Assembly: GCA_022705745.1 (NCBI GenBank)
Contig: JAKJDW010000009.1
Span: forward strand, 1-38,997
Reading direction: 5' to 3'
Origin: Patescibacteria group bacterium
Lineage (GTDB): Bacteria > Patescibacteriota > Gracilibacteria > Absconditabacterales > Absconditicoccaceae
Length of the DNA: 38,997 nt
Part shown: positions 876 to 38,997 of the stretch, piece by piece
How the letters are laid out: every line of letters starts with the position of its first letter
Numbering within the stretch: position 1 is the stretch's first letter
The notes under the pieces: generated by a model
What the model saw: only the letters and a program-made list of their open reading frames with translations
Databases searched by the model: none
What the model was told of the DNA's origin: nothing
Translations under genes and position numbers: made by a program

Positions 876-1345
876 AGCTCGCCTTAGCTCCACCACATAG
901 TACTATGTGGCTAAGCGAGGTGAACTTTGTTCACGATAAAGTGATGAATGCTCACGGTGTTCGCGATAAAATGATAAAATGTTAAAATGACTTGTCCCGC
1001 TTAGCGGGATGAATGATGAATTGATGTAGGGGCGGTTATCAACCGCCTGTTATTACAGTAAAAAACATTCATGATGAAATAGTAAAACAAAAACAATGTA
1101 GCCCCGCAATTCTGCGGGGCTGGAAAGGGAAAGTTGTTGTGCTATATGCCCCGTAAGACTATGGGACACAGGAAGAATAAACCTCCCCAAGGAAAGGAAT
1201 TCTCTCCCATTTTCCTCCTTCTAAAGATGGAGGATAATAATTGTTGTCTCCCTTCTGTGAAGGGAGTTGGTCTCCCCCGCAGAATTGCGGGGGTAGAGGG
1301 ATTTATTTAGATCCTCCACTCCGTAGTACCGGAGTTAAAAAAGGA
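876..1345. repeat. intergenic array of GC-rich palindromes
   Basis: This non-coding stretch is a string of hairpins. At 878-919 an outer stem (CTCGC-CTTAG against CTAAGCGAG) encloses a perfect 18-nt palindrome at 893-910. Downstream are TCCCGC-tta-GCGGGA (about 993-1008), GGCGGTT-atc-AACCGCC (about 1027-1043), GCCCCGC-aattct-GCGGGGC (about 1102-1121), CCCCCGC-agaatt-GCGGGGG (about 1272-1291) and ACTCCG-tagtac-CGGAGT (about 1318-1335). Similar units recur near 3.8, 6.1-6.3, 16.4-16.6, 19.57, 21.17 and 25.0-25.6 kb. Also present is the phrase built on 'cgataaaatgataaa', shared with 3.77 kb and 6.1-6.2 kb. I see no gene. Confidence 0.75.
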
Positions 1346-1379: not shown

Positions 1380-2336
1380 ATGATGAAATTAATAGTAGAT
1401 CCAGCTCAAAGATTTTCAAAGATGAGAGCTCATACCGCCACACATCTTTTGCATGCTGAACTTACAAAAATATTCCCAAACACAAAACAAGCATGATCTT
1501 TGGTAGATGATGATCTTTTGAGATTTGATTTTTATGCTGATAGATTACTTACAGTAGAAGAATTACAGACAATAGAAGAAAATATCAACATTTTGATTCA
1601 TCAATCATTGTCTGTTGTTTGCAAAGAAATGTCTTTGAAAGAAGCACAAGAACTTTGAGCAAAAGCATTTTTTGATGAAAAATATTGAGAAGTAGTTCGT
1701 GTTGTTCAAGTTTTGGCTTCCAATTTACTAGATGAAAATAATAAAAAGGATTTTGTTTCTATAGAACTTTGTGGAGGTACTCATGTTCAAAACACAAAAG
1801 ATGTTTGAGCATTTGTAATCGTAAATCAAGAAGCGGTCGCTAGTGGGATCAAGAGAATTACAGCATTTACAGGCCCAAAAGTCATGAAAAGATTACGAGA
1901 AACAAGAGATATTCTTTATCAGGTAGCAGAAAAGCTTTGAGTAAAAGCAGAAAATCAGATATTGGACAAACTAGAAAAAGAACTAAAAGAAAAAGAAGAA
2001 ATGAATTCTAAATTTGAGTCCATAAATACAAAATTAATTGTAGATACCTTAAGATCTAGTGAGTTTCCTTCTGATAAGGTGTTTGATAAAATAATAAATG
2101 TTTCCCAAAATGATGTTTTGAAAGATTTGGAATTCAAAAATATTATTTTCCAAGCAAAATGAGTTTTTGAAGATTCTATAATTCTTATACTCAATAATGA
2201 GTGATGATTTGCCTTAATAAATTCAAAAGAAAATAGTTCAGCAAAAGATATCGCTCAAAATTTATGACTCAAATGAGGATGAAATGAAAATATTGTTCAA
2301 TGAAAAGATCCAAAAGTTTTAGAATTGTTTCAGTAA
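1380..2336 (+). CDS. stand-alone alanyl-tRNA editing/DHHA1 protein (AlaX-like or AlaRS C-terminal half)
   Basis: A 318-aa protein matching the C-terminal half of alanyl-tRNA synthetase, without the catalytic or tRNA-binding domains. The editing domain starts near residue 15 with the zinc motif HTATH, continues with KQAGSLVDDDLLRFDF, and has the second zinc motif CGGTH near residue 138, then SGIKRITAFTG. A coiled-coil follows (about residues 180-220). The end has the DHHA1 signature GGGNENIVQGK. The family hydrolyses mischarged Ser- or Gly-tRNA-Ala in the cytoplasm. The frame is closed upstream, so this is a separate gene, not the tail of a longer one. It is followed after 1 nt by the hydrolase gene. 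Either a trans-editing AlaX-type factor or one half of a split AlaRS is possible. Confidence 0.8.
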
Positions 2337-2337
2337 T

Positions 2338-3006
2338 ATGGAGGAAACACTTAAGATTGTTGATTCAGAAAATATAGTTCATTGAAAATTAAATTCAAAA
2401 CAAAAATCAGAAAAATTAATTATATTTGTTCACTGACTTTGATGAAACATAAATGAACATATTTTTTTCAATTGATATAAGTTTTTTAATGATAAATGAT
2501 TTGATACTTTTAGAATTGATTTATATCGTGAAATAAATCTTACAAACAATACAATTGCAAATCAAATAAAAGACTTAGAACTTACTGTTAACTATTTCAA
2601 AGATAAGTATGATGAGATATATCTTATTTGACATAGCCTATGATGACCTACAATTCTACTGTCGGACCTTTCTCATATAAAAAAAATAGTGTTACGAGAT
2701 CCATGTTTAAATACAAAAATGTCTTTAAAAGATGAATTAAAATATTCAGATCACTATATTTACGTTTCTTGGTGAATGGATATTATAATATGAGATCAAA
2801 TGGAGCAAGAAATATTGTCAATTTGAGACCTTAATGAAAGGTTGAACAATAAAGTAAAATTAATATATGCTTCCAATAAAAAACTATTTGCTGAGCTAAG
2901 CAAAATGGATATAGAATATGATTTTGTTAAAGATTCAGATCACCCTTTTAGAAATGAGTGAAATTTGGAAGAACTTTTTGAAAAAACTTTTAATTATTTA
3001 CAATAA
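2338..3006 (+). CDS. alpha/beta hydrolase (RBBP9/YdeN-like size)
   Basis: A 222-aa cytoplasmic protein without a signal peptide. It has an oxyanion-type HGLGG loop near residue 33 and the nucleophile elbow GHSLGG (Ser near residue 100), and a C-terminal DHPF that can supply the catalytic His. Several of these glycines are TGA codons, so a standard-code reading destroys the gene. The substrate cannot be told from sequence. It starts 1 nt after the editing-protein stop and is followed after 2 nt by the ZIP-like gene, so the three are probably one transcript. Confidence 0.8.
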
Positions 3007-3008
3007 AA

Positions 3009-3743
3009 ATGACCCCTTTTTTATGAGCTTTAGTTTGAAATATTATTATATGATTATCTTTGGTTATTTTAATATTTATTTTGAGATTTTTCAAAAAACA
3101 ATTGGTAAAATATATAGATTATTTTGTTGCGATTACAGTTTGAGTTTTACTTTGAGTAGTGTTTCTATGATTCCTACCAGAAATAATAGAATCATGAATG
3201 CACTGACATGAAATCGGAATTTATGTTTTAGTATGACTTTTTGTATTTTATGTGTTAGAATTAGTCTTACACCATCATCACTGCAAAGACCTATCAAATA
3301 AAGACGAGCATCATCAAGAACACGAAAATCAAACTCTAATTTTTATTTGAACATTTTTGCATAATATTTTGCATTGAGTTATCTTGTTTTCAGCATTTGC
3401 GATTAGTACTGAGTTTGGAATTGCTACTACTATAGCTGTTTTGCTTCATAGTATACCTCAAAATACAGCAAATTATATTATGAATCACAAGAAAGAATCC
3501 TTTGTGATTATAGCAGCACTTGGAGGAATCATCGGAGCAATAATCCTATTCCCATTCAAAGAGTTTTTACTAACAAATAAATTTATTATAATTGCTATGA
3601 TGGCTTGAGCATTGTCATATTTAGCACTTACTGACATCTTACCAGAAGTGAAAAATAAATGATGACTCAAAATAAAATTATTTTATCTTTTATTTATGTT
3701 ATTAAGTCTGTTGTTTGTGCTTTTATTAAATCATGGTCACTAA
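3009..3743 (+). CDS. ZIP-family-like metal transporter
   Basis: A 244-aa polytopic membrane protein with about seven to eight hydrophobic segments. A His-rich cytoplasmic-type loop (LHHHHCKD, then DEHHQEHE) separates early and late helices, as in ZIP transporters. The late part carries HNILHG and LLHSIPQN, corresponding to the HNxxDG and HExPQE metal-site helices of ZIP proteins, but the Asp and Glu are replaced (HG, HS), and LTDILPE follows. ZIP proteins import Zn, Fe or Mn. The changed ligands may mean altered specificity. The start ATG lies 2 nt after the previous stop. The gene contains many TGA-Gly codons. Confidence 0.7.
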
Positions 3744-3764
3744 AAGGAGTTTACTTTGCTAGCG

Positions 3765-3960
3765 ATAAAATGATAAAATGACGAGGGGCGGGGATAGGTG
3801 GGGTTTGTCACCAACAACCCCCAACTACATTAGAGCAACTTCCCCGTAGGGGAAGAATGTCTTGCTTGTGGCTTGTGGTGATTTAAGAAATAAGTAGTAA
3901 ACAACTTATCAGCAAAGCAAAGGAGAACAGACCGTACTTCTATAAACATCCCCTTTAATA
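3765..3960. repeat. intergenic repeat cluster
   Basis: This stretch holds the phrase 'gcgataaaatgataaaatg' shared with 0.95 and 6.1 kb, the phrase 'ctacattagagcaact' that recurs at about 25.18 and 25.30 kb, and a TTCCCC-gta-GGGGAA hairpin near 3842-3857. I see no coding potential. Confidence 0.6.
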
Positions 3961-3989
3961 TAAATACTTTATAAACTTACCAATTCACT

Positions 3990-4799
3990 ATGAAAATAAC
4001 TTCACGAAATGTAAACTGAATCAGAGCGGTAATAAATAAATGATTTGATGAGCGATTCAAAAAAGACAATCCAGATATTTTATGTATTCAAGAACCAAAA
4101 GCATTTGAACATCAAATTCCAGCAGAATTGAAATTTATTACAAAAGATTACAATTATATTCGACATTCTGGGACAAAATCATGATATGCTGGTACAGCTA
4201 TTTTTTACAAAAAAGATTTAAAAGTAATTTCCACAAAAAATCATTTTTGAGAATTGGAACAATTTCATGAAGATGGTAGAGTAGTAGAGATGAAATTTCA
4301 CGGGAAAGATAATAAAGATTCCGTTTTCACTCTTTTGAATATTTATTTCCCCAATTGATGAACTAAGGCAGATGGTACGGAAATGCTAACCTACAAGCTA
4401 GAGTTTTATGAAAATTTTATTCAGTACATCAACAATCTTAGAGCAAATTGAGAAAATATAATTACGACATGAGATTTCAATATCTGTCACCATCCTATAG
4501 ATATAGCAAGACCAGAGGAAAATAAGGATTCTATATGATTCCTTCCTATAGAAAGAAAAAAGCTGGACAAACTACAAGCAAACTGATATGTGGATGTTTT
4601 TCGTCATTTTAATCCATATTTGAAAGATAAATATACTTGGCGATCTTATCGTGCATGAGCTAGACCAAGAAATGTTTGACGGAGATTGGATTATTTCCGA
4701 GTATCAGAAAATATTTTACCATTGATTAGTCATATTGATCATCAGGATCTTGTAATGTGATCTGATCATTGTCCAATTAGTTTGGAATTGGATATATAA
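3990..4799 (+). CDS. xthA: exodeoxyribonuclease III / AP endonuclease
   Basis: A 269-aa protein of normal length for ExoIII, the base-excision-repair enzyme that cuts DNA at abasic sites and degrades 3' ends. All family landmarks are present in order: N-terminal NVNGIRA, the metal-binding Glu in CIQEPKA (residue 35), NIYFPNG, the active-site TGDFN, RPRNVGRRLDYFRVS with the catalytic Asp, and the C-terminal SDHCPI His. Most glycines are TGA codons. It is a single gene converging on the M16 peptidase gene, whose stop is only 3 nt away. ATG has no Shine-Dalgarno sequence. Confidence 0.95.
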
Positions 4800-4802
4800 A
4801 TT

Positions 4803-6026
4803 TTACTCAATCCAGTACTGATATAAATTTTCTTTTTTGAACTTATTAGTAATTTCCAAAACATCTTCCAGTTTCATATTTCTGTATATTTCTAATATCT
4901 CATCTAAAGTTTTTATTTCTCAATACAAAAGGTACTGACTTCACATAAAATCTGCCATATTGTCGCTCGACTCTATTCACATTTGGACTTGTCAAATATT
5001 GTATCCAATTGCTTTTTCAAATTCTTCTTTACTTATATCTCATTTTGCTATACTTTCTAGTTCTTCATAGATTTTTTCCACACCAAAATCAAATCTTCCT
5101 TTTTCCAATCATGCTCTAATTATAAAAACTCAGCTATCTGAATCACTCATATGTCTAGCATTGATATAATAACAAAGTCATTGTTTTTCTCTTATATTTT
5201 GGAATAATCTAGATGACATGTTTCATCCAAGTATCGTAGACAAAACATTAGCAGCATATCTTTTTGTATCATGACCATCAAATCATTTAGCAGAAATTAT
5301 AAGGTGATTTTGTTCTGTTTTTTTGGAATAAAAATCTTTTTGTTTGCTTGGTAAAATATTTTTGAATTCAGGCTTTTCTATGCTACTTTTTTCAGGTAAG
5401 TTTTGAAAAGTATCAGCAATAATGTTTTCAAGTTTTTTCTGATTTTCAATTTTCCCAGCTATTACCAAAATTAAATTATCTTTGGTATAAAGACCATTTT
5501 TGTGCCTTATCAAATCTTCCCTAGTAAATTTTTTTATATTTTCTACTGGTCATAAAGTACTTCGTCCATAACTATTATCTCAGTAAAAAAAATTCTTCCA
5601 TTTGTCTATCACCAATATTGGAGGATTGTCTTCATACATCATGATCTCTTGGATTACCACTCATTTTTCTCTTTCCATTTCTGCTTGTGGAAATTGTGCA
5701 TTTAATATCATATCTCACAAAACATCAATAGATTTTTCTACGAATTCTGGAGCAGATTTTACATAATATCAAGCATACTCATCTCATGTATATGCATTAA
5801 ATCATCCTCCAAAACTATCTACAGCTTCCGCAACTTCTTTTGGAGTTTTGTATTTTTTTCATCATTTGAAAAACAAATGTTCCAAAAAATGACTTATCCC
5901 ATTAGTTTCTCTTGTTTCATATATACTACCAGCCTTAGCTAATATTTGAACTGTAGTAGAATTAGAATCTTTCATGGGTACAAACAGACACTCCAATCAT
6001 TTGATTTTTTTTATTTCGTATTTCAT
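4803..6026 (-). CDS. M16 family zinc peptidase
   Basis: A 407-aa protein of the insulinase/processing-peptidase family. The inverted zinc motif HxxEH is present as HFLEH near residue 49, and the downstream metal-ligand Glu fits the segment EREKGVVIQEI. The C-terminal half shows the usual second domain, with ILGGNMSSRLFQNIREKQGL (the R/Y substrate-anchoring region). There is no signal peptide, so it probably acts in the cytoplasm, degrading peptides. It converges on xthA with a 3-nt gap. ATG at 6024-6026 is chosen because it gives the normal family N-terminus. Confidence 0.92.
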
Positions 6027-6089
6027 AAGAAAGAATAATTAAAAATTAAATGTCTTATCATACTAACAAAATAATTTTGAAAATAAAGA

Positions 6090-6385
6090 TAATATACCAA
6101 GCTCGCTCCGCTCGCGATAAAATGATAAATGCTCACGGAGTTCGCGACAAAATGTTAAAATGATAAATGCTCGCCCCATTAAGCGGGGTGAACTTCGCTC
6201 ACGATAAAATGATAAAGTGATAAAAAACAAACATTCCTGGTTTTTTGGCAGGCGCGAATTCGAATTCGCGCCTACAAGCAATGGGGAAAAAGAGAGTTCT
6301 CGATTTTGCTTCGCAAGGTAAGAATGTTTTATTAACAACTTTTAACTTTATGAACTTTTAACTTTATTAACTTTTTTACTTAAAC
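6090..6385. repeat. intergenic repeats including a perfect 22-bp palindrome
   Basis: Three variants of a phrase 'cgataaaatgataaa' alternate with 'gctcacggagttcgcga'-type units, also found near 0.94 kb. CGCCCC-attaa-GCGGGG forms a hairpin near 6172-6187. At 6251-6272 there is a perfect 22-nt self-complementary sequence (GGCGCGAATTC and its reverse complement). At 6335-6378 short 'aacttttaacttta' units repeat, seen inverted at 12.22-12.27 kb. An apparent 91-codon reverse frame here is an artefact of these repeats. Confidence 0.65.
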
Positions 6386-6450
6386 GACCAGTCTTTATCT
6401 GACTAAATTCTGGACTATAATTAAGTGTTTTTAAAAATTGACAAATTGAC

Positions 6451-6478
6451 TTGACAAATCAAAAAAAAGATATATAAT
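6451..6478 (+). promoter_or_regulatory. consensus sigma70-type promoter
   Basis: TTGACA (6451-6456), a 16-nt spacer and TATAAT (6473-6478) match the housekeeping consensus exactly. The expected transcript start is near 6485, giving a leader of about 27 nt before the ATG at 6512. Confidence 0.8.
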
Positions 6479-6511
6479 TACAGCGTCCGTTTAAATTATA
6501 ATTTAAAATAA

Positions 6512-7882
6512 ATGGAAGGAAATAAAAACAAAAGAAAAATAAAACGACTGTGTTTCGCTTTAATTTGGGGAATGATTCACATGGTAAGTTTAGGTATAGC
6601 TGTAGAAGGTAATAAAACTTTTGCAGCAAATATGCCATTTATTACATTTCAGGAAACCCAAAAAGAAAATTCTACCAAAATCAAAGAATCAATATCAGAT
6701 GTTCTTTTTAAATTTGTAGACTTTATAAAAACAAAAGTATCGAAGAATAACCCTAAACACACATCTTCATCAAACATTACTATAGATAATAGTTATGTAG
6801 AGGAAAAATTTCTTCCCAAAGAATACTTTTTGGATGTTTTATATAATAAAGATAAATTTTACATAAATTTTTTAGCAAAAGAAAAAATTGTTTCCACAAG
6901 CCAAGAAAAGTTTTATCCAGATAACTTTATCCGCTTAAATGAATTGTTAAAAATTTTAGTGAACTCCTATCGTTACAAAATAGGATATAACCTAGATTCA
7001 AACATTGGTTTATCTAATAAAAACTATTTTGATAAACTTATGCCAAAATACTATAATACTGCATACGAAATGTGATTATTAAATTGATTGGAAAATATAG
7101 ATGATTATGAAAGATTTGTTTCTTATGATGACTTAAACCAAATCCTACAAAACTTCAAAAGACAATATCCAAAATTGATAAATTTATATTATCTGGATAT
7201 TGATCAATCGAACATTACTATCAAAAGAGGAGATATTTGTAGAATAGTATTCAAGACTTTAATGTTGGATAACGATAAAGATATAGATATAGCTTACCAA
7301 GATGTTTATTATCATACAAATTTTGATGCAATTCAAAATTTGGCATCTTTGTGAATTACTAATACTGAAAATTCTAGATTTTACCCAGATGATAATATAT
7401 CTCGTTGAGATTTTATAGTAATGTTTGTCAGGTCTTACTTAAAAAAGACGAACAAGACCTTGGAAGTATCAAAGATTGATTTTGATATAGAAGATTTGGA
7501 TTACAATTCAATTTACGCACCCTATGTTCTTTATGCAAAAGAACATGGTCTTGTAGACTACCTTTTGGAAATTGTTAGGGCTAAAAAATATATTAATCTT
7601 GAAAAGTTTATTACAAAACACGAAGCATATTATATAGTATCAAATATCGCTAATGTTAGTTTTGATTACGACATTTTGAAAGCAGATAAAGAATTTATTT
7701 CTAGATGAGAATCTGCACAACTTATGGTGGATGCTTTCGAGTTCTCTTCCAAATCATGAGCATCAAAAAATAATTTAGATAGAGATAACACTCCAAATAG
7801 TCAGTTAGAAAAATTTGTTATAAACATTAAATGACTAATAAAATCTCCAAAATCATCTTGGATTTTGGACCAAGCATCTTAA
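6512..7882 (+). CDS. secreted SLH-like surface protein
   Basis: A 456-aa protein with a basic N-terminus, a hydrophobic segment at about residues 13-32 and an Ala-rich cleavage-like site (TFAANM), so probably exported. The mature part has repeated helical units resembling SLH repeats: FYPDNFIRLNELLKILVNS, RFYPDDNISRGDFIVMFVRS, and a weaker third repeat ending ISRGESAQLMVDAF. Pro-Asp-x-x-x-x-R followed by a hydrophobic helix is the SLH pattern. It is probably attached to the envelope. The first third uses GGN for Gly and the rest uses TGA heavily. A consensus promoter lies just upstream. Same general class as the protein at 1-423. Confidence 0.65.
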
Positions 7883-8025
7883 AAACTTTATTATACTATT
7901 TTATACGATATTTCAACAACAAAATTTCCATCTTTTTTTGTTCAAATCTCCATTTTCATGAAATTTAAATCATCCCTAAAAGCTATTTTAAATTTTAAAT
8001 TATCCTTTGTTGATAAGTTTTTTAG

Positions 8026-8064
8026 AAAAAAAATAGCACCCGTTAAAACAACAAAGTGCTATTT
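8026..8064 (-). terminator. intrinsic terminator
   Basis: On the minus strand AAATAGCAC and GTGCTATTT (8056-8064 and 8031-8039 in window coordinates) form a 9-bp stem, followed by a run of T. It lies 10 nt beyond the stop of the gene at 8075-8719. On the plus strand the run after the stem is poor, so it serves mainly the minus gene. Confidence 0.75.
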
Positions 8065-8074
8065 CGTCTTTCGT

Positions 8075-8719
8075 CTATTTATTTATTAAATTTTGTATTT
8101 TTAGCTGCAGCCTATATACCAATGTAGGTATCATTATTAACCCAAATCCAACAATAAGCCCATAAATAATACCTAATCCTAGACAATAGACTAGAAAGCA
8201 CAGAGCTGTCAGAACAACCACATCTAGAGAAAGATAAATTTTTTCTTTTTTCTTTCTCCTTTTTAAATCTGAAACAGCCCTACTTATTGCATAAAATAAA
8301 GCAATAAGTATCGGTACCAAAATTCCTATACCATCCTCTTTTATTGAAGATCTCCGCGATGAGTACGGAGATAGCAATTCTTCATTGGTAAGATTTTTCC
8401 CATCGTACCTAATAGAGAGATCTTTATTTAGTCCCTCTACTGAGACACCGAAAAAAAAGGGATTTTCCCATTTAATTTTTCTTTCAAATGGTTTTTTCCC
8501 TATAAAAATCCTTTTCCCAGGATTTTGGCATGCTTCCCATTGTTGGGAAGTTGTTCCATAAATCTTACTCAAATCCTGCTGGATTTCTAGTAAGAATTTA
8601 GTAGCCACAATTGTTTCTACATAACCATCTCTATTTTCAATAAATAGAGTAGTTTGTCCAAATGTGCTACCAAGTCCTGCTAAAAGCAGAACTAAAATTG
8701 AATTTTTTATTTTTTTCAT
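8075..8719 (-). CDS. membrane protein of unknown function, free of TGA codons
   Basis: A 214-aa protein with an N-terminal signal-like segment (residues 6-22, ending GLGSTFGQ), an exported domain of about 110 residues, then three hydrophobic segments (about 130-147, 163-185 and 186-203), with a very basic loop RRKKKEK between the first and second. I do not recognise the family. Its 17 glycines are all GGN and none is TGA, unlike every neighbour. Stop TAG. It has its own terminator. This codon use may mean recent transfer from a standard-code donor or selection against TGA; it does not identify the function. Confidence 0.75.
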   Translation of the reverse strand: MKKIKNSILVLLLAGLGSTFGQTTLFIENRDGYVETIVATKFLLEIQQDLSKIYGTTSQQWEACQNPGKRIFIGKKPFERKIKWENPFFFGVSVEGLNKDLSIRYDGKNLTNEELLSPYSSRRSSIKEDGIGILVPILIALFYAISRAVSDLKRRKKKEKIYLSLDVVVLTALCFLVYCLGLGIIYGLIVGFGLIMIPTLVYRLQLKIQNLINK

Positions 8720-8899
8720 AATTTTTAATTTTATATTGTTTTTTGTTATGTTAATAACAATAACTATTTTGTTAACAAAGTCAATTGTAAAAAATATGGA
8801 TTGTATTTACTTAATTATATTTTTTTATACTTTTCTAGCCTATTATTAGATTTTTTTCATAAAAGTCAAACACCTCTTTTAAAAAAAGTACTCAAAAAT

Positions 8900-8928
8900 T
8901 TGACAATAAAACATTTTTCGGTTATACT
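8900..8928 (+). promoter_or_regulatory. sigma70-type promoter
   Basis: TTGACA (8900-8905), a 17-nt spacer and TATACT (8923-8928) lie upstream of the surface-protein gene at 8989. The AT-rich leader that follows contains a direct duplication of about 18 nt ('aatatatttattatatta', near 8940-8977). Confidence 0.7.
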
Positions 8929-8988
8929 TATAATATAAAAAATATATTTATTATATTAAAATATATTTATTATATTATAGTAAACAAA

Positions 8989-10749
8989 ATGACATGAATC
9001 AAACATCATCTAAATTTAACTTCTAGAAACATCTGACACCATTTCAAAAAACATCACAAAAAGTATGTTTTTGGACTAATTTCTGGTGCTTTGTTATATA
9101 AAACATTATCATTAATTTTAGCTAATGTTTTTTTAAACAATTTTGGTACACATCAATCTTTCGCAGATAATACGGAAATACCAACAAATCCAGAAGTGGA
9201 ATATGTTGAAGAAAATAATTCAAATGATAATTCTTCAGGTGAAAATTTATATTATCAAAATAATGAAGAAGAAAATAATTTATCAGGAGACTCTGGAACA
9301 GAAAATTCAACTCCAGAACAAGAAGACCCAGAGCCTACCAATGAAATAGACCCAGAAGTTTGTAATTTAGGGGATATAGAGTTATTGTCCCCTTTATCGT
9401 GAGATATTTTAAAATGAGAAATTGAGATTTCTTGGATCTATAAAAACAAAATTTGCGAGGATATACCGCTTATTATAAAACTCCGAGATGCGAATACTCA
9501 ATATATAAAAATTTGAGAAGCTAATGAATGAGAAACTTGATTAAATTTTGATAGTTCACTATTATATTCGTGATATTATAATATCACATGACTAAATTTA
9601 AGTGGTGAAGTAATTATAACTCACACTTGAGAATATACATGATTGAATACAAAATACTTTTCATGACATAAAATAGTGATATATTCCTCTGATATGGAAG
9701 TATTATGTGAATGAGAAAAATTTACAATAGATAATGAAGCACCAAGTTTATCTAATGTAGAAGTAAACACGGATACTATAAGTGGAAATTACATTTGATT
9801 AGGCAAAAAAGTATCAATATCTTTTGGTGCTAGTGAAGAATTATCATGAGTAAGTGTTACCATATTGTGAGTAAATGCAGATTTAGAAGAAAAAGAAAAC
9901 AATAATTATGAATACATAAGCTATCTGTCAGAACAACATACTTCTTGAAATATTATATATAATATTGAGTTTGGAGACCTAGCTGGTAATACATGATATC
10001 ATGAATGATATTCAAATATTATTTTTGATAAGGATTATCCAGAAGTAACAAAACTTGAGTTTAGTAAAACTTGAGATAATATAAAATTGATCTTAAATAC
10101 AGATAAAAGCACCAGTTTGGAATTTGTTTATGTGTTATCGTGAAATAATACTTGATATAGTATAAATTCGTCCTTTTGAACTTCTCACAATATGTTATTA
10201 GAAAATATAAGGACCTGATCTTATTATAATTACTCAGTGGCAATTAAAAGTCTGGCCAACAATGTTTTATATATTTGAGGATATTTTAGAATTAGCTGAG
10301 ATAATGTGTCGTATGACTTTCAAAATATTAGTTGATCAAATATGCTCGTGGGTGTTTGATTTATGCCTAAAACAATAAACTCTTGATCTGTGTTAGATAG
10401 TCTATTAATAGAAATAGATAAATTTAATTCATGTAAACAATGAATACCAAAATTTACTAACATAAATATTCCAATCGGATTATATCATACACAAATAAAA
10501 ATGCCAGAATTGGAGAAATCTTATGTAAAAAAACTAGTTAGTGCTTTTTCCATAGTGCTTTTTGAAAGAATTGAAGATGCATGACTAAATAAAGAAATTG
10601 TAGAAAAAATCACAGAAGAGTTTAATGATTTCCTTGTTATATTAAAATTAGTTCAGGATGATGATAACCAATGTGAACAAAGTTTATCAAATTACTATAT
10701 GTCAAGATTTAAAAATAATTTAATAAAGTATAATTTAGCAGATAAATAA
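8989..10749 (+). CDS. large secreted surface protein with acidic linker and Ig-like body
   Basis: A 586-aa protein. The N-terminus is long, basic and His-rich (GHHFKKHHKKYVFGL), then hydrophobic to about residue 50, then QSFADN, a likely cleavage site. A very acidic Asn/Glu/Ser/Pro linker follows (about residues 60-120). The body (about 130-480) is rich in beta-type sequence, with recurring blocks such as IDNEAPSLSNVEV and FDKDYPEVTKLEF, which resemble the starts of bacterial Ig-like or cadherin-like domains. The last 110 residues are helical and charged. It is probably an adhesin or other surface protein; no enzyme motif is seen. TGA is the main Gly codon. Promoter at 8900-8928. Confidence 0.6.
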
Positions 10750-10808
10750 CGGATATTGTCCACAAAAGCAGGATTTATAACAATTTTAGTATAATTTAAT
10801 TATTTAAT

Positions 10809-11723
10809 ATGAAAAAAACATTAACAATAGATAAAACAAAACGGATTTGTTGGCAGACTCCAGAACAAGACGATATTGAAAAATTATCAAAGCAATATAA
10901 TTTTCATGAGATGATAAAGGAAAACATGCTAGATATTAATGCTGAATCTAAATTTAGCACTATAGATGATAATTTTTTTATGGCATTAGCTTTTACAAAA
11001 TATTTAAAATCTAAATCCAAATATGTTTTTAATGAACTGGATATAGTTATTTGAAAAGATTATATTATTACCACTACATGATTGTTTTCAGAAAAACTTG
11101 ATATGGTATTCAATCAAATATCTCATGAATCAAAAGACATTAAAAACTCATACAAATCATCTCCATATTTTATTCTTTATAAAATTATTGATGTTTTTTA
11201 TGATAAAACACTTAATTCCCTAGATAAATCAGCAAAAAAACTTCTGAATATGGAGTTAAATATTTGAAAAAATGAACGAGATTTTGTAAACGAATTAATA
11301 AATGAGGATTTAAACAAAATTTTTGTAAAACATAATTTTATTTCGCAAGAAGATGTTATTGACGAATTAATAGAACATCTGGATATAATCGGTGAAAAAC
11401 GCCTTATTATATATTTTAATAACCTAAAACAAAAACTTACAAAAATTATTAGAACAATAGAGAGTTTAGAAGAAAAAAATGACTCTCTTATATCTGCATA
11501 TAACACATATTTATCAATAAAAAGCAATAAAAGTATTACAAGGCTAACACTTATTAATTCAACATTTTTACCTCTTACCATTCTTGTAGGAATGTTGGGG
11601 ATGTCAGAACGAACCATGATGACAGGTCAAACAAATCGGAAAATAGCTTATCCTTTATTTATTTTCTTGTGTTTAATTATAGCATATATTACATATATTA
11701 TACTTAAAAAAATATTTTCATAA
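10809..11723 (+). CDS. CorA-like divalent-cation transporter with altered GMN motif
   Basis: A 304-aa protein with the CorA plan: a cytoplasmic alpha/beta N-terminal domain, long charged helices (about residues 130-245) and two C-terminal membrane segments. The pore signature at the end of TM1, normally YGMN, reads LVGMLGMSE, so the Asn is Ser. The short periplasmic loop, normally acidic (MPEL), is ERTMMTGQTNRK. CorA proteins are pentameric Mg2+ or Co2+ channels; loss of GMN usually abolishes Mg2+ transport, so transport by this protein is uncertain. A TATAAT at 10790-10795 is a possible -10 element. The gene converges on tsaE, 8 nt away. Confidence 0.75.
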
Positions 11724-13648: not shown

Positions 13649-16168
13649 TTATCTTGTAATTCATTTTACATCCAAATGCTCCAAAAGTAGTTCTTCTAGG
13701 CATCTTCATAAATCTTGGGAATCCTTACATACAATTCCGAATCAGTTTTTATTTTCTTGTGGATCTGAGGATTTTTTCCCAAAAATAGGGACCATTGGCG
13801 CTCAATCTTTGGTGATTCAAATTCCGCAAACGATTACATTTTTTTCTCTGAGTCTTTTGATAGTGGCAATAGCATTAGGTTTAGCATTGTTAGAACTGTT
13901 AAACTCTCAATCTGAAAGAAGAAAAACAATTTCTTTATCTTTATCATTTTTTATGTTTTCAAGAAATGCCTCGTGTTGCTGTTTTGTTTGTCCGTCAAAA
14001 GGTTGAGATAATTGCTGTTCATAGAGTTCTAAGGCTTCATCTGCATTTGTGCTTGGTCAATCATCGTAATCAAGTCCTTCTCAAATTTTTATAACATCTT
14101 TGATAGTCATTTCAGTATTTCTTTTTTTTAGGATATCTACATCACTACCATTAAACATCATCACTTGGGTATTGATTTTTAGAGGTTCGCTGAGATTTTC
14201 GTTTTTTAGTTCTTCATTTAGCTGTTGCAAAGCATATATCATCAGCATGGTTGCATCTTTTTGATGTTGATTTTTGTTTTTTTGTCTCATACTCGATGAT
14301 CAGTCAGTGATGATCGTTAGATTAAATCCACCAGCGAGTTTTTTGGTTTTTTCTTTCCGAAACTCTTGTTTCATCATGATGGGATCGTGACTTCCAGATT
14401 TAATTTCTACGATTCCACTTACAAAACTATGAGGATCAAATTGTCCTCATTCCGAAAGTGGTTGTGGAGACTTTTCTTTTAGGCTTCTTTTTTTCCTTTG
14501 TTGAACGATTTTTGCAAAAATTTCTTTTGTGAGATAATCATAAATTGGACGCCCCTCTTTATCTTTCATTGATTTTAACTTTTCTTTGTATTGTTCTTCT
14601 TTTTTGATTTTTTCTTTGTATGTATCGAGAGTAGATTGATCCACATCATCTCATAAATCTCGTTCTTTTTTGATTTTTTCTTCCAAATTACGCTCTTCTG
14701 GGGATTTGTTTTTCTCCTTTTCGTATTTTTCAATCATATCTTCAATCATTTGTTGTAGTTGTTCGTTGTTTTGTTGCTGTTTTTCTTGTTGATTTTCGTC
14801 TTTTCATTTTTCCGCTTCCTTGGAAGAGTCTTGTTTCAATATTTCTTCTAATTGTTCATTGGTTGATTCTTGATTTTTTTCTTGGCTGTTTTGAGGTTTG
14901 AATTTCTCTGGATTGTCAAAAATACTCGGCAATGTCATTGGTTGAATATCTGGATTGTCTTTTATTGAATCTTGTTGCTGGTCAGAACCCTGTTCTTTAG
15001 AGTTTTGTTCTTGTTGATTAGAATTTTGCTCTTGTTGATCAGGGGTTTGCTGTTTTTGACTAGGATCTTGCTGTTGTTCACTGGAATTTTGTCATTCTTG
15101 ATTAGAATCTTGCTCTTGTTGATCAGGGGTTTGCTGTTTTTGACTAGGATCTTGCTGTTGTTCACTGGAATTTTGTCATTCTTGATTAGAATCTTGCTCT
15201 TGTTGATCAGGGGTTTGCTGTTTTTGACTAGGATCTTGCTGTTGTTCACTGGAATTTTGTCATTCTTGATTAGAATCTTGCTCTTGTTGATCAGGGGTTT
15301 GCTGTTCTTGACTAGGGTCTTGTCCTGTTTTATTAGAGTTTTGTTGTTTTGGATCAGGATCTTGTTTCTTTTGTGGGTTGGAATCCTGCTGTTGATCAGA
15401 CATTTTTTTCAGTTTTAGATAGTATTCTTCGTATAGCTCTACAATTGCGGGAAATTGTTCATCGTAGGTCAGATTTGGATCTTTTATTTTATCCAAAAGT
15501 CCTCAAGGAGCATTTACAAAATTCAGACAATTTTGGACTATACTGTCTACTTTGCAGGTCTCATCTTCAAGCATAGCTCATCTCAAACAAGTCCGAGCGA
15601 ATTGCTCATGCAAGGGTATTTTGGAAAAATTTCCACTTGGAATAGCGATATTTTGATAAATTTCTCTCCTGGAATTATCATATACAGGAGCTTGAATTTT
15701 GGTCGCATGGAAGTTTACATCAATATCTTCTAGTTGATTTTCAAATTCGTGAAATTCCATTCCGTATTTTTGTGTAATATGTTTATGAAATTCTTCCATT
15801 GAAAAGGTTTTGTTGTCATATTTGATTTTTTGAGTGCTTTTTTTGAGTTGATTGTGGTTGATGATATGATTGATCTTATGTAATACAAGTGCAGAAAGAT
15901 GGTTGATATCAAAGTGAAAATCTGATTTTATTCAGGTTTCTTTGAGTCTTTGTTCAGCGATCATCTGGTAAAGCTTTATTGCATATTCAGGATTAAAAAA
16001 AACTTTATTAACACCCGGAATCATTCGAGCGATTCATTCGTGTTTGGTATCGATTTGAAATTCTACTCAGGTTTGTTTGGTGATGATTGTCATATTTTCC
16101 ATAAAACGCTCAATAATTTCTTTGTTGTCGATTAATTCGGTTATTTCTGGTTTTTTTGGTTTGTTCAT
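13649..16168 (-). CDS. VWA-domain protein partner of a MoxR-like ATPase (CobT/DUF2201-like)
   Basis: An 839-aa cytoplasmic protein in three parts. Residues 1-260 are helical, with a degenerate zinc-peptidase-like motif HKINH (97-101, HExxH with Lys for Glu). Residues about 270-560 are a low-complexity Gln/Asp/Ser/Lys linker with four 28-residue tandem repeats. The C-terminus (about 610-839) is a von Willebrand A domain with an intact MIDAS DGSSSM at about 622-627 and VIVCGIGITKDGAPM near the end. VWA proteins of this type are substrate adaptors or effectors of MoxR/CobS-family AAA+ ATPases, and exactly such a gene lies divergently at 16852. Both have TTGCAA-type promoters. The target of the pair is unknown. 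Confidence 0.85.
15020..15335 (-). repeat. 84-bp in-frame tandem repeat (four units)
   Basis: Landmark positions 15041, 15125, 15209 and 15293 are exactly 84 bp apart. The units encode 28 residues each, starting QEGQNSSEQQQDPSQ, within the VWA protein linker. Units are nearly identical in DNA, so the array is young or homogenised and its copy number may vary. The reverse frames across it look open only because of the repetition. Confidence 0.9.
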
Positions 16169-16299: not shown

Positions 16300-16735
16300 T
16301 TGTATTACGACGAAAGAGATTCCGAAAAGTGTTTGGTGCTTTAGGACATCTCTTTTTTTTGTGATATAGGATCCAAAAATTAGTTTTGGAAAATTTACTG
16401 TTGATGGATTTCTCACATATGTTCGAAAAGACAACAAATAATGTGCCCCTTTATGAAAGGGGCTGTCCGAAGGACTGGGGATTTTTAAGTTTTTACTATA
16501 AAAAATCCTCCGCCCCGCAGAATTGCGGGACACCTCCTTTCAAAAAGGAGGACAAGATTCTTCACTTCGTTCGAAATGACAAGAAAATTCCCCCGCTTCC
16601 AGCATCCACCTTTTCAAAGGAGGAAAATATAATTGATGGATTTCTCGCTGTGTTTGAAATGACAAAGGATTGTCATTCTGAAGAGCTGAAGGCAACATGA
16701 GAATCCATTGTGTAGAAGGTTTGCAGAAAATGAAT
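16300..16735. repeat. intergenic repeat cluster between the VWA and ATPase genes
   Basis: It contains GCCCCTTT-atg-AAAGGGGC (about 16444-16462), CCGCCCCGCAGAATTGCGGG (about 16510-16529), phrases 'ttcacttcgttcgaaatgac' (about 16561-16580) and 'tttgaaatgacaaaggattgtcattctgaagag', typical of the dispersed repeats also found at 25 kb, and two near copies of 'atttctcacatat'. The apparent frames here are not genes. Confidence 0.65.
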
Positions 16736-16851: not shown

Positions 16852-19542
16852 ATGAAAAAGACAACGCCAGTAAAAAAGAATTTACATAGCATTACGCATA
16901 ATGTTTCATCTGAGTACTCGGAAGAGAGACCTGATTTGGAAAAAGTGCGCAAGTTGCAAGTTTTTCGTAAAAGGTATGAAAAAATGAGTAATGATCAATT
17001 ACTAAATGCCTTGCTTGCATGAGATTTGTGATGAGAAACAAAAGAAGAAAACGAAGAAATAAAATCAGAATTGAGAGAACTTTTTTCAGATGAAAAGAAT
17101 ATTACTGAACTTAGAAAATTACTTCAAGAAAATAGTGAAGATGTGCAGAATTTGCTTCATGGATACAAAAAGCTGGCTGTTATCAAAAATAACGATAAAA
17201 AAATAGCAGAATTAGAATCCCAAAATCGTGAAATAAAACTCAATCTTTTTGCGAATGGAAAAACTTTGGAAACGGCAACAACAAGAACTCAGCAGAAATA
17301 TAACGAAAACAAAGCAAAGATTAAAAAATTACAGCGTGAAAATCAAAAACTTCTCAATACAAAAGAAATCGTGGCTGCATATGAATTGGATAAACTTGCT
17401 CAGTATTCAGTGCCATTGAGGAATAAAAAGCGTGTTTATACACCGAGTGTAAAGGAATATCAACAAAAAGTCAGTGATTTGATGCTGGATAGACAAAATG
17501 TTTTGCTTTCTGGACCCGTTGGGACATGAAAAACAAAGATGGCGAGAAAAACCTACCGTGAAATGCTGGATGCAAAATTTCAGGCAGGAACTATTTTTCA
17601 AGAAGATTACGAAACGATGAAAGCTAATCCGATTGTGAATGGAAATGAGGAATCCACACTTCGTGATATCAATTCCAAACCGTTACAACTTTCCAATAAG
17701 GCAGAAGACTGAAAATCAATTCAATATGGAACATGAATTTTAACTCGTTGTATGAAGAATGGATTGCCATTGATTATTGATGAAGCAAATCGTGTGCCAT
17801 CAAATTTTTTATCAGGATTAAAGTGTTATCTTTCTATGGAAAACTGAGATACCTATGAAGATACGATCACACAGGAAAGGCTTGAAGTACAATGACCATT
17901 ACAACTTATCCTGACTGCCAATGAGTGAAGTAGATATAGTCAAGATGTGAATCGTTTTCAGGATCAGATTACGAGAGAATTTACGAGAATACCTATTTTA
18001 TATTTTCCAAAAGAAGAGCTGTATGATGTTTTTAAGGCAAAACTTTATGAACCTCCGGGTTTTGCTTATGTAACAAAATATGATTTGACAGATAATTTGA
18101 AAAATCTTGTAGACGCGATAGATGAAGTCAATCAGCTGTATCTGAGTGGAAAAGAATATACAACGAGCTGAAATATTAGTGGAATGAGGATCAGATCCAC
18201 CGTAATTGATACACAAAGGGCATTGGAACTTGTCCAAAGATCAAAAATCTGAAGTAAAGAAACTTTTTGGCAGGAAATTAACGAAAATATTGTGAATTTT
18301 ATCAAATGAATAGAGCCAAATTGTGATGATGATCGTAAAATCCTCTGTTCAATTTTTCATGCAAAATGATTGCTGTGCAAAGAAAATATCCCTGAACTTC
18401 TCAAATGATCGGATAAACTCGAAAAATCAGATTTGGAATCACTTATCACGACTCCACAAAAATCAGTAGATAAAAATCACGGAGAGAGGATCACGATGCC
18501 ACGAATTTTTGCTACGACTCAACCCTACGCGAGATATAACGGGAAAACCTTTGATGAACTTGGTCGAGATAATGTTGAAACACAGATTCGTGCGGTGGCA
18601 AAAGATATTGTTGAATTAAATGTTTTCAACCCACTCAATGATGGTCAAATTTGTGAAATCTTGCAAGATTGTAGAAACAAGTCTGATTTGCAGAAAGTTC
18701 TATCAGAATTAGTCAAAAAAGCAGAATCTGAGTCAGATAAAATTACTGAAATTGTTGAAATCTTGGAATCAGCAGAAAAAATCAATTCATCACTTGTCCC
18801 AGCAGATTGGAGAGAGGGGGTAGAAAAGTTGAGAGTTCCAGAGAGTTATGAGAAAATCTCCACTTCTGGGTGGAGTGGTTCTGGGAGTATAGAGGAGAGG
18901 TTATCAGAAGTATTATCTGGTCTACCAAACGAAATCCAAAAGTTCCAACAAGCTCGAGAATCAACTATTGATTTAGATGAGGCGACCAAAAAAGAGATGA
19001 TTGCATTGAGAGATAAACTTCTCCAAGATGGGACGCTGACTTATCAAAATCATCCTGAATGATGAATTATCACCACCTTTAACGGACTTAGCTGAGTAGA
19101 AAATCCGAGATTCTATGATGCAACAAAGATCCTAAAACCAGCATTTGAAAAAGATGGTATTTTAGAAGAAAATGAATATACATTTTACTGACAAAAGCTT
19201 TCAATCCGAGCTAAATTAAAATGATTGAGATGAGATATAGACAAGTGGTCGGCAAAAAATACTGCTAATGCTATCAAAGAACAATGAACTAAATATTGAC
19301 TCAAAATGCACTCAGAAGAGGATATGAAAACATTGTTTGAAAAAATAAATACTAAAAACAGAAGTTGATGGAATGAAAATAAAAACATTGCATTTTGGTC
19401 CTTATGCACAGGATGTAAATGAAGGTATCGGCTTTCTAACTATTCTGGCTCGTCTCGTTCCTTTCTGGAATCCTATAGCGTCACTCGTTGTTCCCACCAG
19501 GACAGTGATGATGATGATTACTTCGCGGGGATTTTACTCTAA
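16852..19542 (+). CDS. MoxR/CobS-like AAA+ ATPase with C-terminal lectin-like tail
   Basis: An 896-aa protein. Residues 50-190 are charged and probably coiled-coil. The AAA+ core has Walker A GPVGTGKT (221-228, one Gly as TGA), Walker B PLIIDEANR (306-314), a sensor-1 region LILTANEGSRYSQDVNRF (about 350) and ITREFTR, typical of the MoxR/CobS/McrB group. A long helical region follows (450-830). The last 51 residues (846-896) start IAFWSLCTGCKGRYRLSNYS and end in an Asp run and YFAGILL. They resemble the C-type-lectin/FISUMP-like tails of variable proteins and differ in base composition from the rest (80 nt at 19424-19503 have only 15% A). It pairs with the divergent VWA gene, presumably to remodel a target protein. 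Confidence 0.85.
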
Positions 19543-19562: not shown

Positions 19563-19582
19563 CTCGCCCCGTAGGGGCGATT

Positions 19583-20248
19583 TTACTCCTCACAGAAATC
19601 AAGTTTCATTTTGATAATCCCTATCAGCTCAGATAGGAGTTTGTTTTTCATAAAAGTTTTTTGTTTCTCATCCAGTAACTCTCCCAATCCGTCCAGTATT
19701 TTATAATTTTTTGGTAATCATTCCAGCTTTTGCAGTATCTTTTGTAATAATGTTTTCAAACTTTGCCCTGTCCTTTCATAGACAATATCTTCATCAATAT
19801 CAAATAAGTTTGTGAAAAAGAAGTACACATCATAGATATCCCTGTTTGTAAATCTTTCAGATAATGCCACCAATTTGTTGGTAAATAAAGTCGCTTTGCT
19901 TTGTACTTTTATGTCTGTCCCATAAAAATCGACGATATCGTACTTGTTAGCTTTCCAGATTTTTCTACTAATATCTATTTTGATATTGGCCTCTTGATCT
20001 CCGTATGATAAAACCATTTTTGGTCAGATTTTTACTTTTCCATAGGGTTTCAAAAGCTCTGCAATTCAAGTATCAATACTCGTTTTTCAAAAAAAATCAA
20101 AATCCAAATCAGTAGAAAATCTATCTAGTCCATACAAAAAATAAGAAGCTGTTCATCACTTAAACGCTAATTGTGAGGCGTACTTACTAGTAAAAATGTC
20201 TTTGATGATTTTCATGAGTAAAACTCTGTGTTTGTCTCTATTAAGCAT
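19583..20248 (-). CDS. AbiEii-type nucleotidyltransferase toxin
   Basis: A 221-aa protein of the AbiEii/AbiGii family (DUF1814 nucleotidyltransferases). It has the signature LAFKGGTASYFLYGLDRFST then DLDFDFFG near residues 26-54, where GGT and the D-x-D pair bind the NTP and metal. The segment NKLVALSERFTNRDIYDVYF fits the family's conserved KLxALxxRxxxRDxYD block. Such toxins transfer nucleotides to tRNA or other targets and act in phage defence. The upstream antitoxin-like gene overlaps it by 8 nt. The unit lies between the two copies of the ATPase gene end. Confidence 0.88.
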
Positions 20249-20801
20249 TTTTGATTAATTTTTTAACTTGTAAAATAACTCTTTGATTGTATATTTGAGA
20301 AATATCTATTAATTTTTGCTTGTCTATTCATTCTAGATTGTCAAAATAATAATTTTGCGACAAATACAATCTATCGCAAATAGCTCTTTCTTTGCTAGCG
20401 ATCATATATCATCATTTATTTATCAATCAAATTGGATTGTACAAAATACTGTCTTTCAATTTCAAACATTTAAAAGTATATCAAAAAGCTTTCTTTTCAA
20501 TCGTATTATTGCTTGCTAAAAAAATAGTTTTCCCATAATCCTGAAAGATAATTCATTCTTTTTTCAAAACTGTCTCAAATGAGATGTAGCTTTGTGTCTT
20601 TATTTTTGATGCAAATTCAAAAATATCAAAATTTTTGAAAGCATAAATTCACTTATAAGGTCTGATAAGAATTCAAGCTTTGATTTGTCTATCCAAAAAA
20701 GATTTCAAAGTCTCTCTATTTTGAATTCAAAGAATAGACTGTAGGTTTTGATAGGTAAAGACTGTCTTTTTGGATTGCAGGAGCTTTCATATGTGACTCA
20801 T
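20241..20801 (-). CDS. AbiEi-type antitoxin / transcriptional regulator
   Basis: A 186-aa protein with an N-terminal winged-helix-like segment (TVFTYQNLQSILGIQNRETL, then LDRQIKAGILIRPYKGIYAF) and a C-terminal domain with the family block MIASKERAICDRLYL. AbiEi proteins neutralise AbiEii and repress their own promoter. It is the first gene of the operon, overlapping the toxin start by 8 nt, the usual AbiE order. A promoter at 20834-20861 precedes it. Confidence 0.82.
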
Positions 20802-20861: not shown

Positions 20862-21127
20862 TGCGTTTTTTGAAAAAATACTGACTAAGGATTTATTTAA
20901 AAACTAGTGTGAAAACATCATTTGAAAAAATAAATACCCAAAGTGGAAACTCATGAGATGAAGATAAAAAGATTGCATTTTGGTCCTTATGCACAGGATG
21001 TAAATGAAGGTATCGGCTTTCTAACTATTCTGGCTCGTCTCGTTCCTTTCTGGAATCCTATAGCGTCACTCGTTGTTCCCACCAGGACAGTGATGATGAT
21101 GATTACTTCGCGGGGATTTTACTTTAA
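20840..21127 (+). pseudogene. second, truncated copy of the ATPase C-terminal domain
   Basis: With TGA as Gly the frame is open for 95 codons from ATG 20840 to TAA 21125-21127. Its first 40 residues align loosely with the ATPase segment just before the tail (KKYGLRIYLKTSVKTSFEKI against KYGLKMHSEEDMKTLFEKI); the last 51 residues are identical to the ATPase tail. It lacks the AAA+ core, so it is a remnant or a tail-only cassette. It starts inside the AbiE promoter region and there is no clear promoter of its own. Confidence 0.65.
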
Positions 21128-24899: not shown

Positions 24900-25600
24900 T
24901 AAGCTAATAAAGCCCGCTCCACAATATTGAGAGGTTCATAAAGTTTGTAAAGTTATACACCCCCTTAATAAGGGGGGATGGGGGATTTTGTGATAAATGA
25001 GGGTTTTTTACTTAATCCCCTTACTAAGGGGGATCCCGCAATCCTGCCCCGCTGTTTAAGCGGGGCGAGTGGGGGAGAGCAACTCCCTTCTATGAAGGGA
25101 GACATTTTGTTGAAATTGGATTTCTCCGTGCGTTCACTTCGTTCACTTAGTCGAAATGACAAGCTGTATATAAATCCCTCTACATTAGAACAACTCCCTT
25201 TACGAAAGGGAGACAATAATTTTTGTCCTCCTTCTTTAGCCTCGCAATCCTGCCCCGCTGTTTAAGCGGGGCGAGCAGGGGTGGAGGATGTTAAATCCCT
25301 CTACATTAGAGCAACTCCCTTTGTCTTGATATGTCGGGACTCCACTTCGTTTCGCAAAAGGGAGACATTTTTTGTAAAGAGATTTCTCCGTGCGTTCACT
25401 TCGTTCACTTAGTCGAAATGACAGTCTGTGGCTCAAATCCCCCCTTTTTCCCTTGCTCCCCGATAGATCTCGAACAAAGTGAGATCCCGATATATCGGGT
25501 CACTTCGTTCGAAGGAGGACAACTCGCAACTTGTAACTTTTTAACTTTATGAACCCTGCAAGCGGGGCAAGCTTGCAACTTTATAAACTTTTATTTGCAG
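24900..25600. repeat. dense intergenic repeat block
   Basis: About 700 bp of reiterated units. The phrase 'tttctccgtgcgttcacttcgttcacttagtcgaaatgac' occurs at about 25121-25160 and 25382-25421. 'aatcctgccccgctgtttaagcggggcgag' occurs at about 25041-25070 and 25247-25276. 'ctacattagarcaactccctt' occurs at about 25180 and 25300 and also at 3.82 kb. There are stems CCCCTTA-ataag-GGGG, CTCCCTT-n-AAGGGAG (three times) and GATCTCGAACAAAGTGAGATC. Apparent 60-95-codon frames with SFRLSERSERTEKS-like sequence are products of these repeats. Confidence 0.75.
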
Positions 25601-25772: not shown

Positions 25773-26003
25773 ATGAAATCAATATTCAACAATAGAATAT
25801 TTCGAGATATTACCAATGTTGACTACCAAAAACACAAGTCAGCAGTTATTTTTAGAGTTGTTAGATATTGAGATTTCCAAGATTTATTAAATTTAAAACA
25901 AATATATTCACAACAAGATATAAGGGATTTTACACAAAAAAGATCAAAAGAACTAGACCTATGAGAGCAAAAACTTTTATCTTTGTTGTATATGAATGCT
26001 TAA
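25773..26003 (+). CDS. small putative antitoxin of an AbiEii-type module
   Basis: A 76-aa, charged, soluble protein. Its stop overlaps the start of the nucleotidyltransferase toxin gene by 8 nt, the same arrangement as in the AbiE operon at 20.2 kb. The sequence (FRVVRYGDFQDLLNLKQIYS, then LGEQKLLSLLYMN) is helical and suggests a small partner protein. I do not recognise the family; the antitoxin role is inferred from position. A TTGACA at 25741 could be a -35 element. Confidence 0.6.
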
Positions 26004-26640
26004 ACTTGAAATTTTAGAAGCAAGGACCAAAACATTGTTCAATAAATTAGCAAAAGAATGATATGAGTTCCCTTTGGTATGAGGTACGGGCCTATCATTA
26101 CGAATATGACATAGAAAATCTATAGATTTAGATTTTGCTGTACCTAGATTTATTTCAAATAAAGACATAGAAGTTTTTAAAAAAGTTTCCAATAGGTTTG
26201 AAATAGTTTATCAAAGCAAAGAACAAATCAATATGTTTGTTGATTATGTAAAAGTAACCATATTTTCTTATTTTTATAAAAATCATTTTACTACCCAAAA
26301 ATATAAAAAGTTGAGAATTCGAGATCCAAAGGATATCGCAGTTTCCAAAGCTTTTACTATTGGTAGGAGAGAGGAGCTAAAAGATTATATTGATCTATAT
26401 TTTATCCTAAAAGAAAAAGTTCTTAGCTTGGATGAAATGATTAAATTAGCAAAAGAAAAATATCAATGAGAGTTTTCAGAAAAGCTGTTTTTGAAACAGT
26501 TACTTTTGATCAACGAAGTAGGGGAGTGTGAAATTAAGTATCTTAGGGATCCAGCCACTATTCCAGAAATAAATGATTTCTTCAAGAAATTAGTAAAGGA
26601 GAAGATGGAAGCTGATAAAAGTAAAAGTATTTCAGGTTAA
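25996..26640 (+). CDS. AbiEii/DUF1814-type nucleotidyltransferase toxin
   Basis: A 214-aa protein with the nucleotidyltransferase signature FPLVGGTGLSLRIGHRKSID then LDFAVP (residues about 25-50) and the C-terminal block IRDPKDIAVSKAFTIGRREE then LKDYIDLYF, like the KxxAxxxRxxxRDxxD block of AbiEii proteins. It is only distantly similar to the toxin at 19.6 kb, so these are two separate modules. It overlaps the small upstream gene by 8 nt. Its last 126 bp recur at 28457-28582, beyond the Fic gene. Confidence 0.8.
26515..26640 (+). repeat. duplicated 126-bp toxin 3' end, copy 1
   Basis: The last 41 codons and stop of the toxin gene. Copy 2 (28457-28582) has the same length, stays in frame and differs at about ten sites, mostly silent or conservative. 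The copies are in direct orientation on the two sides of the Fic region. Confidence 0.9.
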
Positions 26641-38683: not shown

Positions 38684-38997
38684 ATGACACTAAAAGCATC
38701 ATTTAAATGAGTTAATCCTCAAAACATTAATGTTCTGGGATTGGATGTGGCAAAAGCTAAGATTGATATTTGTTTTCTCAGCTCTAACCACTCCTGATTT
38801 TATCAAATTGCTAACAATTCTCAAGCTATTTCTCAATTTTCACAAGAACTCAAAGCTTTAGGGTTGAATGCAACAATTCCTTTCATTTTAGAATCTACAG
38901 GAGGTTTTCATCTCCTCTTGGCAACATTACTTAAAAATGATGGTTGGAATGTTAAAGAGATTAATCCTATCATAACCCATCAGTACATCAAACACAC
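38684..38997 (+). CDS. IS110-family transposase, N-terminal part (partial)
   Basis: The first 104 residues are visible; the gene runs off the window. The DEDD (RuvC-like) domain shows the first Asp in NVLGLDVAKAKIDICFL (Asp 21) and the Glu in PFILESTGGFHLLLATLL (Glu 70), followed by GWNVKEINPIITHQYIK, as in IS110/IS1111 transposases. TGA-Gly occurs at codons 9 and 38, so the element is adapted to this host's code. The long leader holds a probable bridge RNA. Confidence 0.92.

What the first reader, a model, noticed from the sequence alone, without database searches (positions are those of the whole stretch)
19387..19542. Adenine-depleted, lectin-like tail on the AAA+ ATPase: possible diversity-generating retroelement target
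The tail FWSLCTGCKGRYRL... resembles C-type-lectin-like ends of variable proteins. Codons change abruptly: 80 nt at 19424-19503 contain 12 A (15%) in an A-rich genome, as expected where A positions of a template have been randomised. DGRs are established in CPR genomes. No reverse transcriptase or template repeat is in the window, and the two local copies do not differ at variable sites, so this is a hypothesis.
Basis: partly seen in the sequence, partly recalled or inferred. Interest (0 to 1): 0.75.

Follow-up and report, generated by a model that had tools for sequence, protein, structure and literature searches.

The report
Orphan hypervariable tail on AAA+ ATPase
The end of this ATPase gene looks like the part of a protein that a mutation-making retroelement (a DGR) rewrites, and a sister bacterium carries a related ATPase with a complete DGR, but this genome has neither the enzyme nor the template, so it is most likely a left-over, frozen target rather than an active one.

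Summary
In detail: 19424-19503 has 12 A in 80, and the last 39 codons of the code-25 AAA+ gene (16852-19542) are more A-poor (0.179) and NNY-rich (30/39) than any of 9283 coding windows in this contig. Seventeen A-biased DGR targets of the class show similar values (NNY 21-31, A 0.08-0.24). A homologous VWA + AAA+ pair in the same family (G012) sits in a complete DGR: its AAA+ tail is the VR, with TR, RT and Avd alongside, and 14 of 15 TR/VR mismatches at template A. In this genome there is no RVT_1 or G012-type RT, and a search for any template differing only at A finds only the two tail copies. Those copies are identical over 152 bp, flank an AbiE toxin-antitoxin module, and show no A-specific differences. 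The lectin fold was not shown; fold and profile tests were uninformative. Best reading: orphan, frozen target of a lost or unassembled DGR, of the known CPR AAA ATPase-CLec kind. DGR origin about 0.7; current activity unlikely.

The parts
16852..19542 (+). MoxR/dynein-type AAA+ ATPase gene, 896 aa, code 25
   Evidence: (AAA_5 E 4.9e-5); homologous to the G012 DGR target ATPase, E 9e-30
19387..19538 (+). Tail block of the AAA+ gene, exactly identical to 20972-21123
19423..19539 (+). VR-like stretch: last 39 codons, 30 NNY, A 0.179
20876..21127 (+). Second, truncated copy of the AAA+ 3' end (last 83 codons); 72% identical upstream, exact from 20972 to 21123
19583..20248 (-). AbiEii toxin-like nucleotidyltransferase lying between the two copies
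   Evidence: Pfam AbiEii 1.5e-16; PADLOC AbiEii 2.6e-50
20241..20801 (-). AbiEi antitoxin-like protein lying between the two copies
   Evidence: PADLOC AbiEi 2.4e-40
13649..16168 (-). VWA-type partner protein, divergent from the AAA+ gene, with repeated Q/E-rich linker
   Evidence: VWA_2 only E 0.068, but homologous to the G012 VWA protein, E 2.8e-29
19564..19580 (+). Perfect hairpin TCGCCCC(GTA)GGGGCGA just after the shared block; DGR-type target hairpin or terminator
   Evidence: ambiguous, as 16 such hairpins occur in the window

Best explanation
The tail is the former variable region (VR) of a diversity-generating retroelement whose reverse transcriptase and template have been lost from this genome. 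The host protein is a MoxR-like AAA+ ATPase that works with the divergently encoded VWA protein. In the working system, as in the sister genome G012, error-prone reverse transcription of a template RNA at adenines, followed by retrohoming, would have rewritten the codons of the C-terminal ligand-binding end, and ligand binding would be passed to the ATPase/VWA machine. Here the sequence is frozen, and a second, truncated target end beyond the AbiE module was made identical to it by gene conversion or duplication. Shown: homology of the pair to a DGR-linked pair, VR-type codon signature, absence of RT and template from the assembly, identical second copy. Inferred: past writing by a DGR, ligand binding, lectin-like fold, gene conversion.
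For: Codon signature extreme in the contig and inside the range of 17 A-biased class VRs; positions 1-2 near even, position 3 77% pyrimidine. Among 158 gene ends in family loci the same signature picks four: two proven VRs, the AAA+ homologue of G037, and one unverified ORF. Homologous VWA/AAA+ pair in G012 with VR, TR (14 of 15 mismatches at template A), RT and Avd. RT in 16 of 49 family genomes but none here; no template here. The shared block of about 176 columns running past the stop codon has the size and place of the G012 TR/VR repeat.
Against: No RT, no template, so writing by a DGR is not demonstrated here. The two copies do not differ at A-type sites. A profile of class VR tails does not score the window tail above its shuffles, although several proven VRs also fail. 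No fold support. The tail has no recognisable sequence identity to the G012 tail.
Confidence: 0.6

Rival explanations
1. The DGR is complete and active, but its RT and template are in the unassembled part of the genome and the tail is rewritten in trans.
For: The assembly is 94% complete in 66 contigs; action in trans on remote targets is reported for another bacterium (PMC10907252).
Against: In the family the template lies within 0.5 kb of the VR and this contig continues about 18 kb beyond the tail without one. Two identical tails would be unlikely under ongoing mutagenesis.
Confidence: 0.12
2. The tail is not DGR-written: it is a piece of foreign, GC-richer sequence spliced on to the ATPase, with the AbiE module or by another recombination, and duplicated at both sides of that module.
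For: The tail has 46% GC in a 30-35% GC neighbourhood; two copies flank an AbiE module; the tail is found nowhere else.
Against: Simple GC enrichment does not predict pyrimidine-restricted third positions with near-even positions 1-2. The paired genes are homologous to a proven DGR target locus with the VR at the same end.
Confidence: 0.22
3. Copy 2 (20972-21123) is the template and the tail is an unmutated copy of it.
For: Copy 2 lies downstream on the same strand, as the TR does in G012; without the roughly 1.3 kb AbiE segment the distance would be about 0.3 kb.
Against: A template should be rich in AAY codons; copy 2 is as A-poor as the tail and has a single AAY codon in the last 39. It continues upstream as diverged coding sequence.
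Confidence: 0.04

Closest known systems
[quoted passage not shown] 2017, as described in PMC10907252)
   Same: CPR-type host with code 25, AAA+ ATPase with an A-poor, NNY-rich C-terminal end
   Different: No RT, Avd or template in the assembled genome; lectin fold not shown
G012 locus (L037): VWA + AAA+ + VR/TR + RT + Avd, same family
   Same: Homologous VWA and AAA+ proteins (E about 1e-29); variable end at the same place; repeated block of about 176 bp running past the stop codon
   Different: G012 has TR, RT and Avd and 14 of 15 mismatches at template A; genes are in one operon there and divergent here; about 30% identity in the ATPase, none recognisable in the tail
MoxR-vWA ternary conflict systems with DGRs (Kaur et al. 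2020, PMC7159879; PMC10907252)
   Same: MoxR-like AAA+ paired with a VWA protein, and a DGR-type variable end in the system
   Different: There the variable domain is usually on the vWA partner; the third component was not looked for here

Membership tests
Diversity-generating retroelement (complete) | DGR reverse transcriptase in the genome | tested here: not met
   No RVT_1, no match to the G012 RT; assembly 94% complete
Diversity-generating retroelement (complete) | Template repeat with mismatches confined to template A | tested here: not met
   Pattern allowing A at every position, 3 mismatches: only the two tail copies match; the copies show no A-specific differences
Diversity-generating retroelement (complete) | Population variation at VR codons | not testable with these tools
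   No reads and no second strain carrying the tail
DGR target gene (orphan or former) | C-terminal A-poor, NNY-rich stretch | tested here: met
   30/39 NNY, A 0.179; most extreme of 9283 windows; within the range of 17 class VRs
DGR target gene (orphan or former) | C-type-lectin fold around the VR | tested here: inconclusive
   pLDDT 38 and 49; Pfam blind to proven targets of the group too; profile test underpowered
DGR target gene (orphan or former) | Homologue that is a proven DGR target | tested here: met
   G012 AAA+ and VWA
MoxR-vWA ternary conflict system | MoxR AAA+ with adjacent VWA protein | tested here: met
   AAA_5 match; VWA homologous to G012 VWA
MoxR-vWA ternary conflict system | Third core component (VMAP, iSTAND, FtsH or beta-propeller) | not tested
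   No dedicated profile was run on the neighbours

The most novel reading that the evidence does not exclude
A decayed DGR locus in which an AbiE toxin-antitoxin module took the place of the template/RT cassette, and two target ends were made identical by a last retrohoming or conversion event, leaving a fixed receptor end on the ATPase that is kept as a constant sensor.
Probability: 0.15. Interest if true: 0.5.

Novelty: new member of a known kind. Interest (0 to 1): 0.38.

Why it matters
It adds an apparent orphan (no RT, no template) to the CPR AAA ATPase group of DGR targets, shows that the VR codon signature can flag likely former DGR targets after the retroelement is gone, and documents in a sister genome a complete DGR whose target is a MoxR-type ATPase paired with a VWA protein, which bears on how such sensors are built and lost.

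Tried and rejected
AlphaFold of residues 691-896 and 770-896: low confidence. Foldseek and VIA-align on the second model gave no meaningful match and no lectin row, which proves nothing. Pfam and NCBIfam on the tail: nothing, uninformative because proven targets also give nothing in Pfam. HMM of class VR tails: not above shuffles; leave-one-out shows limited power. Searches for the tail in phages, viral contigs, GTDB contigs and PDB: none. The one class hit (G516) lies inside another gene on the wrong reading and is chance. Synteny with the genus relative G025, to find an empty site: gene order not conserved. Copy 2 as template: rejected on adenine content. Template for the G037 ATPase tail near that genome's RTs: none found. 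The hairpin after the block: the same type follows two of four family VRs directly, but 16 such hairpins lie in the window and two genes converge there, so it is only a lead.

Full report
What is there. The window is one whole contig of a 1.06-Mb, 66-contig, 94%-complete genome. Its genes read through with code 25, TGA=Gly. The AAA+ ATPase gene is 16852-19542, 896 aa, with a dynein/MoxR-type AAA_5 match. A VWA-type protein is encoded divergently at 13649-16168.

The composition claim. Taken alone it is weak, since 468 of 38918 80-mers on the + strand have that few A. In coding frame it is strong: the last 39 codons have A 0.179 and 30 NNY codons, and none of 9283 same-length windows in 27 genes equals either value. 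Codon positions 1 and 2 are near even, and position 3 is 77% pyrimidine with 2 A in 39, against 40% A in the gene body. That is what rewriting of AAY template codons leaves behind (established knowledge of DGRs; the inference for this gene is mine).

Calibration. I fetched RT loci from the family and class and looked for repeat pairs whose mismatches fall on one copy's adenines. Pairs were selected for that bias, so the bias is not independent evidence, but it is extreme (for example 14/15, 30/31, 29/30). I then hand-picked 17 targets whose variable region ends at or near the stop codon. Their last 39 codons have NNY 21-31 (mean 26.5) and A 0.077-0.239 (mean 0.165). The window tail lies inside these ranges; the 26 other gene ends of the window do not (NNY at most 21, A at least 0.299) (that script stopped with an error after printing these values). 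Over 158 gene ends of family loci, NNY>=28 with A<=0.22 picks four: two proven targets, the AAA+ homologue of G037, and one unverified ORF.

The sister locus. Within the family (49 genomes) only G012 and G037 hold relatives of this ATPase at E 1e-10. In G012 the ATPase follows a VWA gene and ends in a variable region; 477 bp further on lies a 176-bp template with 14 of 15 mismatches at template A, then an RT (387 aa) and an Avd-like protein. Both genes of the pair are homologous to those in the window. G256, in another family, has a VWA/AAA+ pair without such a tail, so the pair does not need a DGR.

What is missing. There is no RVT_1 domain and no match to the G012 RT. As a direct test for a template I wrote the VR as a pattern in which every base may also be A (70 nt, up to 3 mismatches; chance expectation about 1e-7; the known pairs show at most 3 non-A mismatches per 70 nt). 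Only the two tail copies match in the whole assembly. By its defining parts this is therefore not a complete DGR in the assembled genome.

The second copy. 20876-21127 repeats the last 83 codons. Identity is 72% upstream and then exact for 152 bp, with homology running about 20 bp past the stop codon. Upstream mismatches are not biased to A (10 of 29 on copy 1, 7 of 29 on copy 2); the identical block has none. An AbiEii/AbiEi pair on the other strand fills the space between the copies. Size and position of the block resemble a TR/VR repeat, but its low A content argues against a template. Gene conversion or duplication between two target ends is the simplest reading; this step is inference.

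Fold. Not established. Two AlphaFold runs gave pLDDT 38 and 49 and no usable structural match. Pfam is blind to proven targets of this group as well. A tail profile does not separate the window tail from shuffles, and misses several proven VRs too.

Place among known systems. [quoted passage not shown] PMC7159879 describes MoxR-vWA conflict systems with DGR-diversified domains, there mostly on the vWA partner. The window fits the first group as an orphan. What it works like (a sensor end on a MoxR/VWA machine) is inferred.

Verdict. Observation confirmed; interpretation partly supported: likely a former DGR target, not shown to be a current one. Interest moderate.

Noticed in passing
L037 (G012:C14:49000-60000), 3450-10931: Complete DGR with a VWA + AAA+ (MoxR-like) pair as target locus, VR at the ATPase C-terminus, TR, RT and Avd-like gene.
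   Followed up: yes
L038 (G037:C21), 1819-6940: A second AAA+ homologue and a smaller paralogue with similar ends (GSRSGG, GSRFGG); the ATPase end is extremely A-poor (0.04) and NNY-rich, yet no template was found near that genome's RTs.
   Followed up: partly
L045, L050, L059, L060: In four family DGRs the non-A mismatch near the 3' end is of one kind: VR has GGACT where TR has GCACT or GAACT, perhaps the IMH / IMH* difference.
   Followed up: no
window 995-1290, 3839, 6250, 16445-16550, 19564, 24960-25210: Many perfect GC-rich hairpins with 3-4 nt loops in an AT-rich contig, probably dispersed repeat elements.
   Followed up: partly
window 13649-16168 (-): VWA protein carries a repeated Q/E-rich linker; the VWA partners in G012 and G037 have similar low-complexity linkers.
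   Followed up: no
window 25996-26640 (+): Another AbiEii-like nucleotidyltransferase judged by eye (GGTGLSLRIGHRKSIDLDF); not tested.
   Followed up: no
window 38684-38995 (+): Start of what looks by eye like an IS110-type transposase at the contig end; not tested.
   Followed up: no
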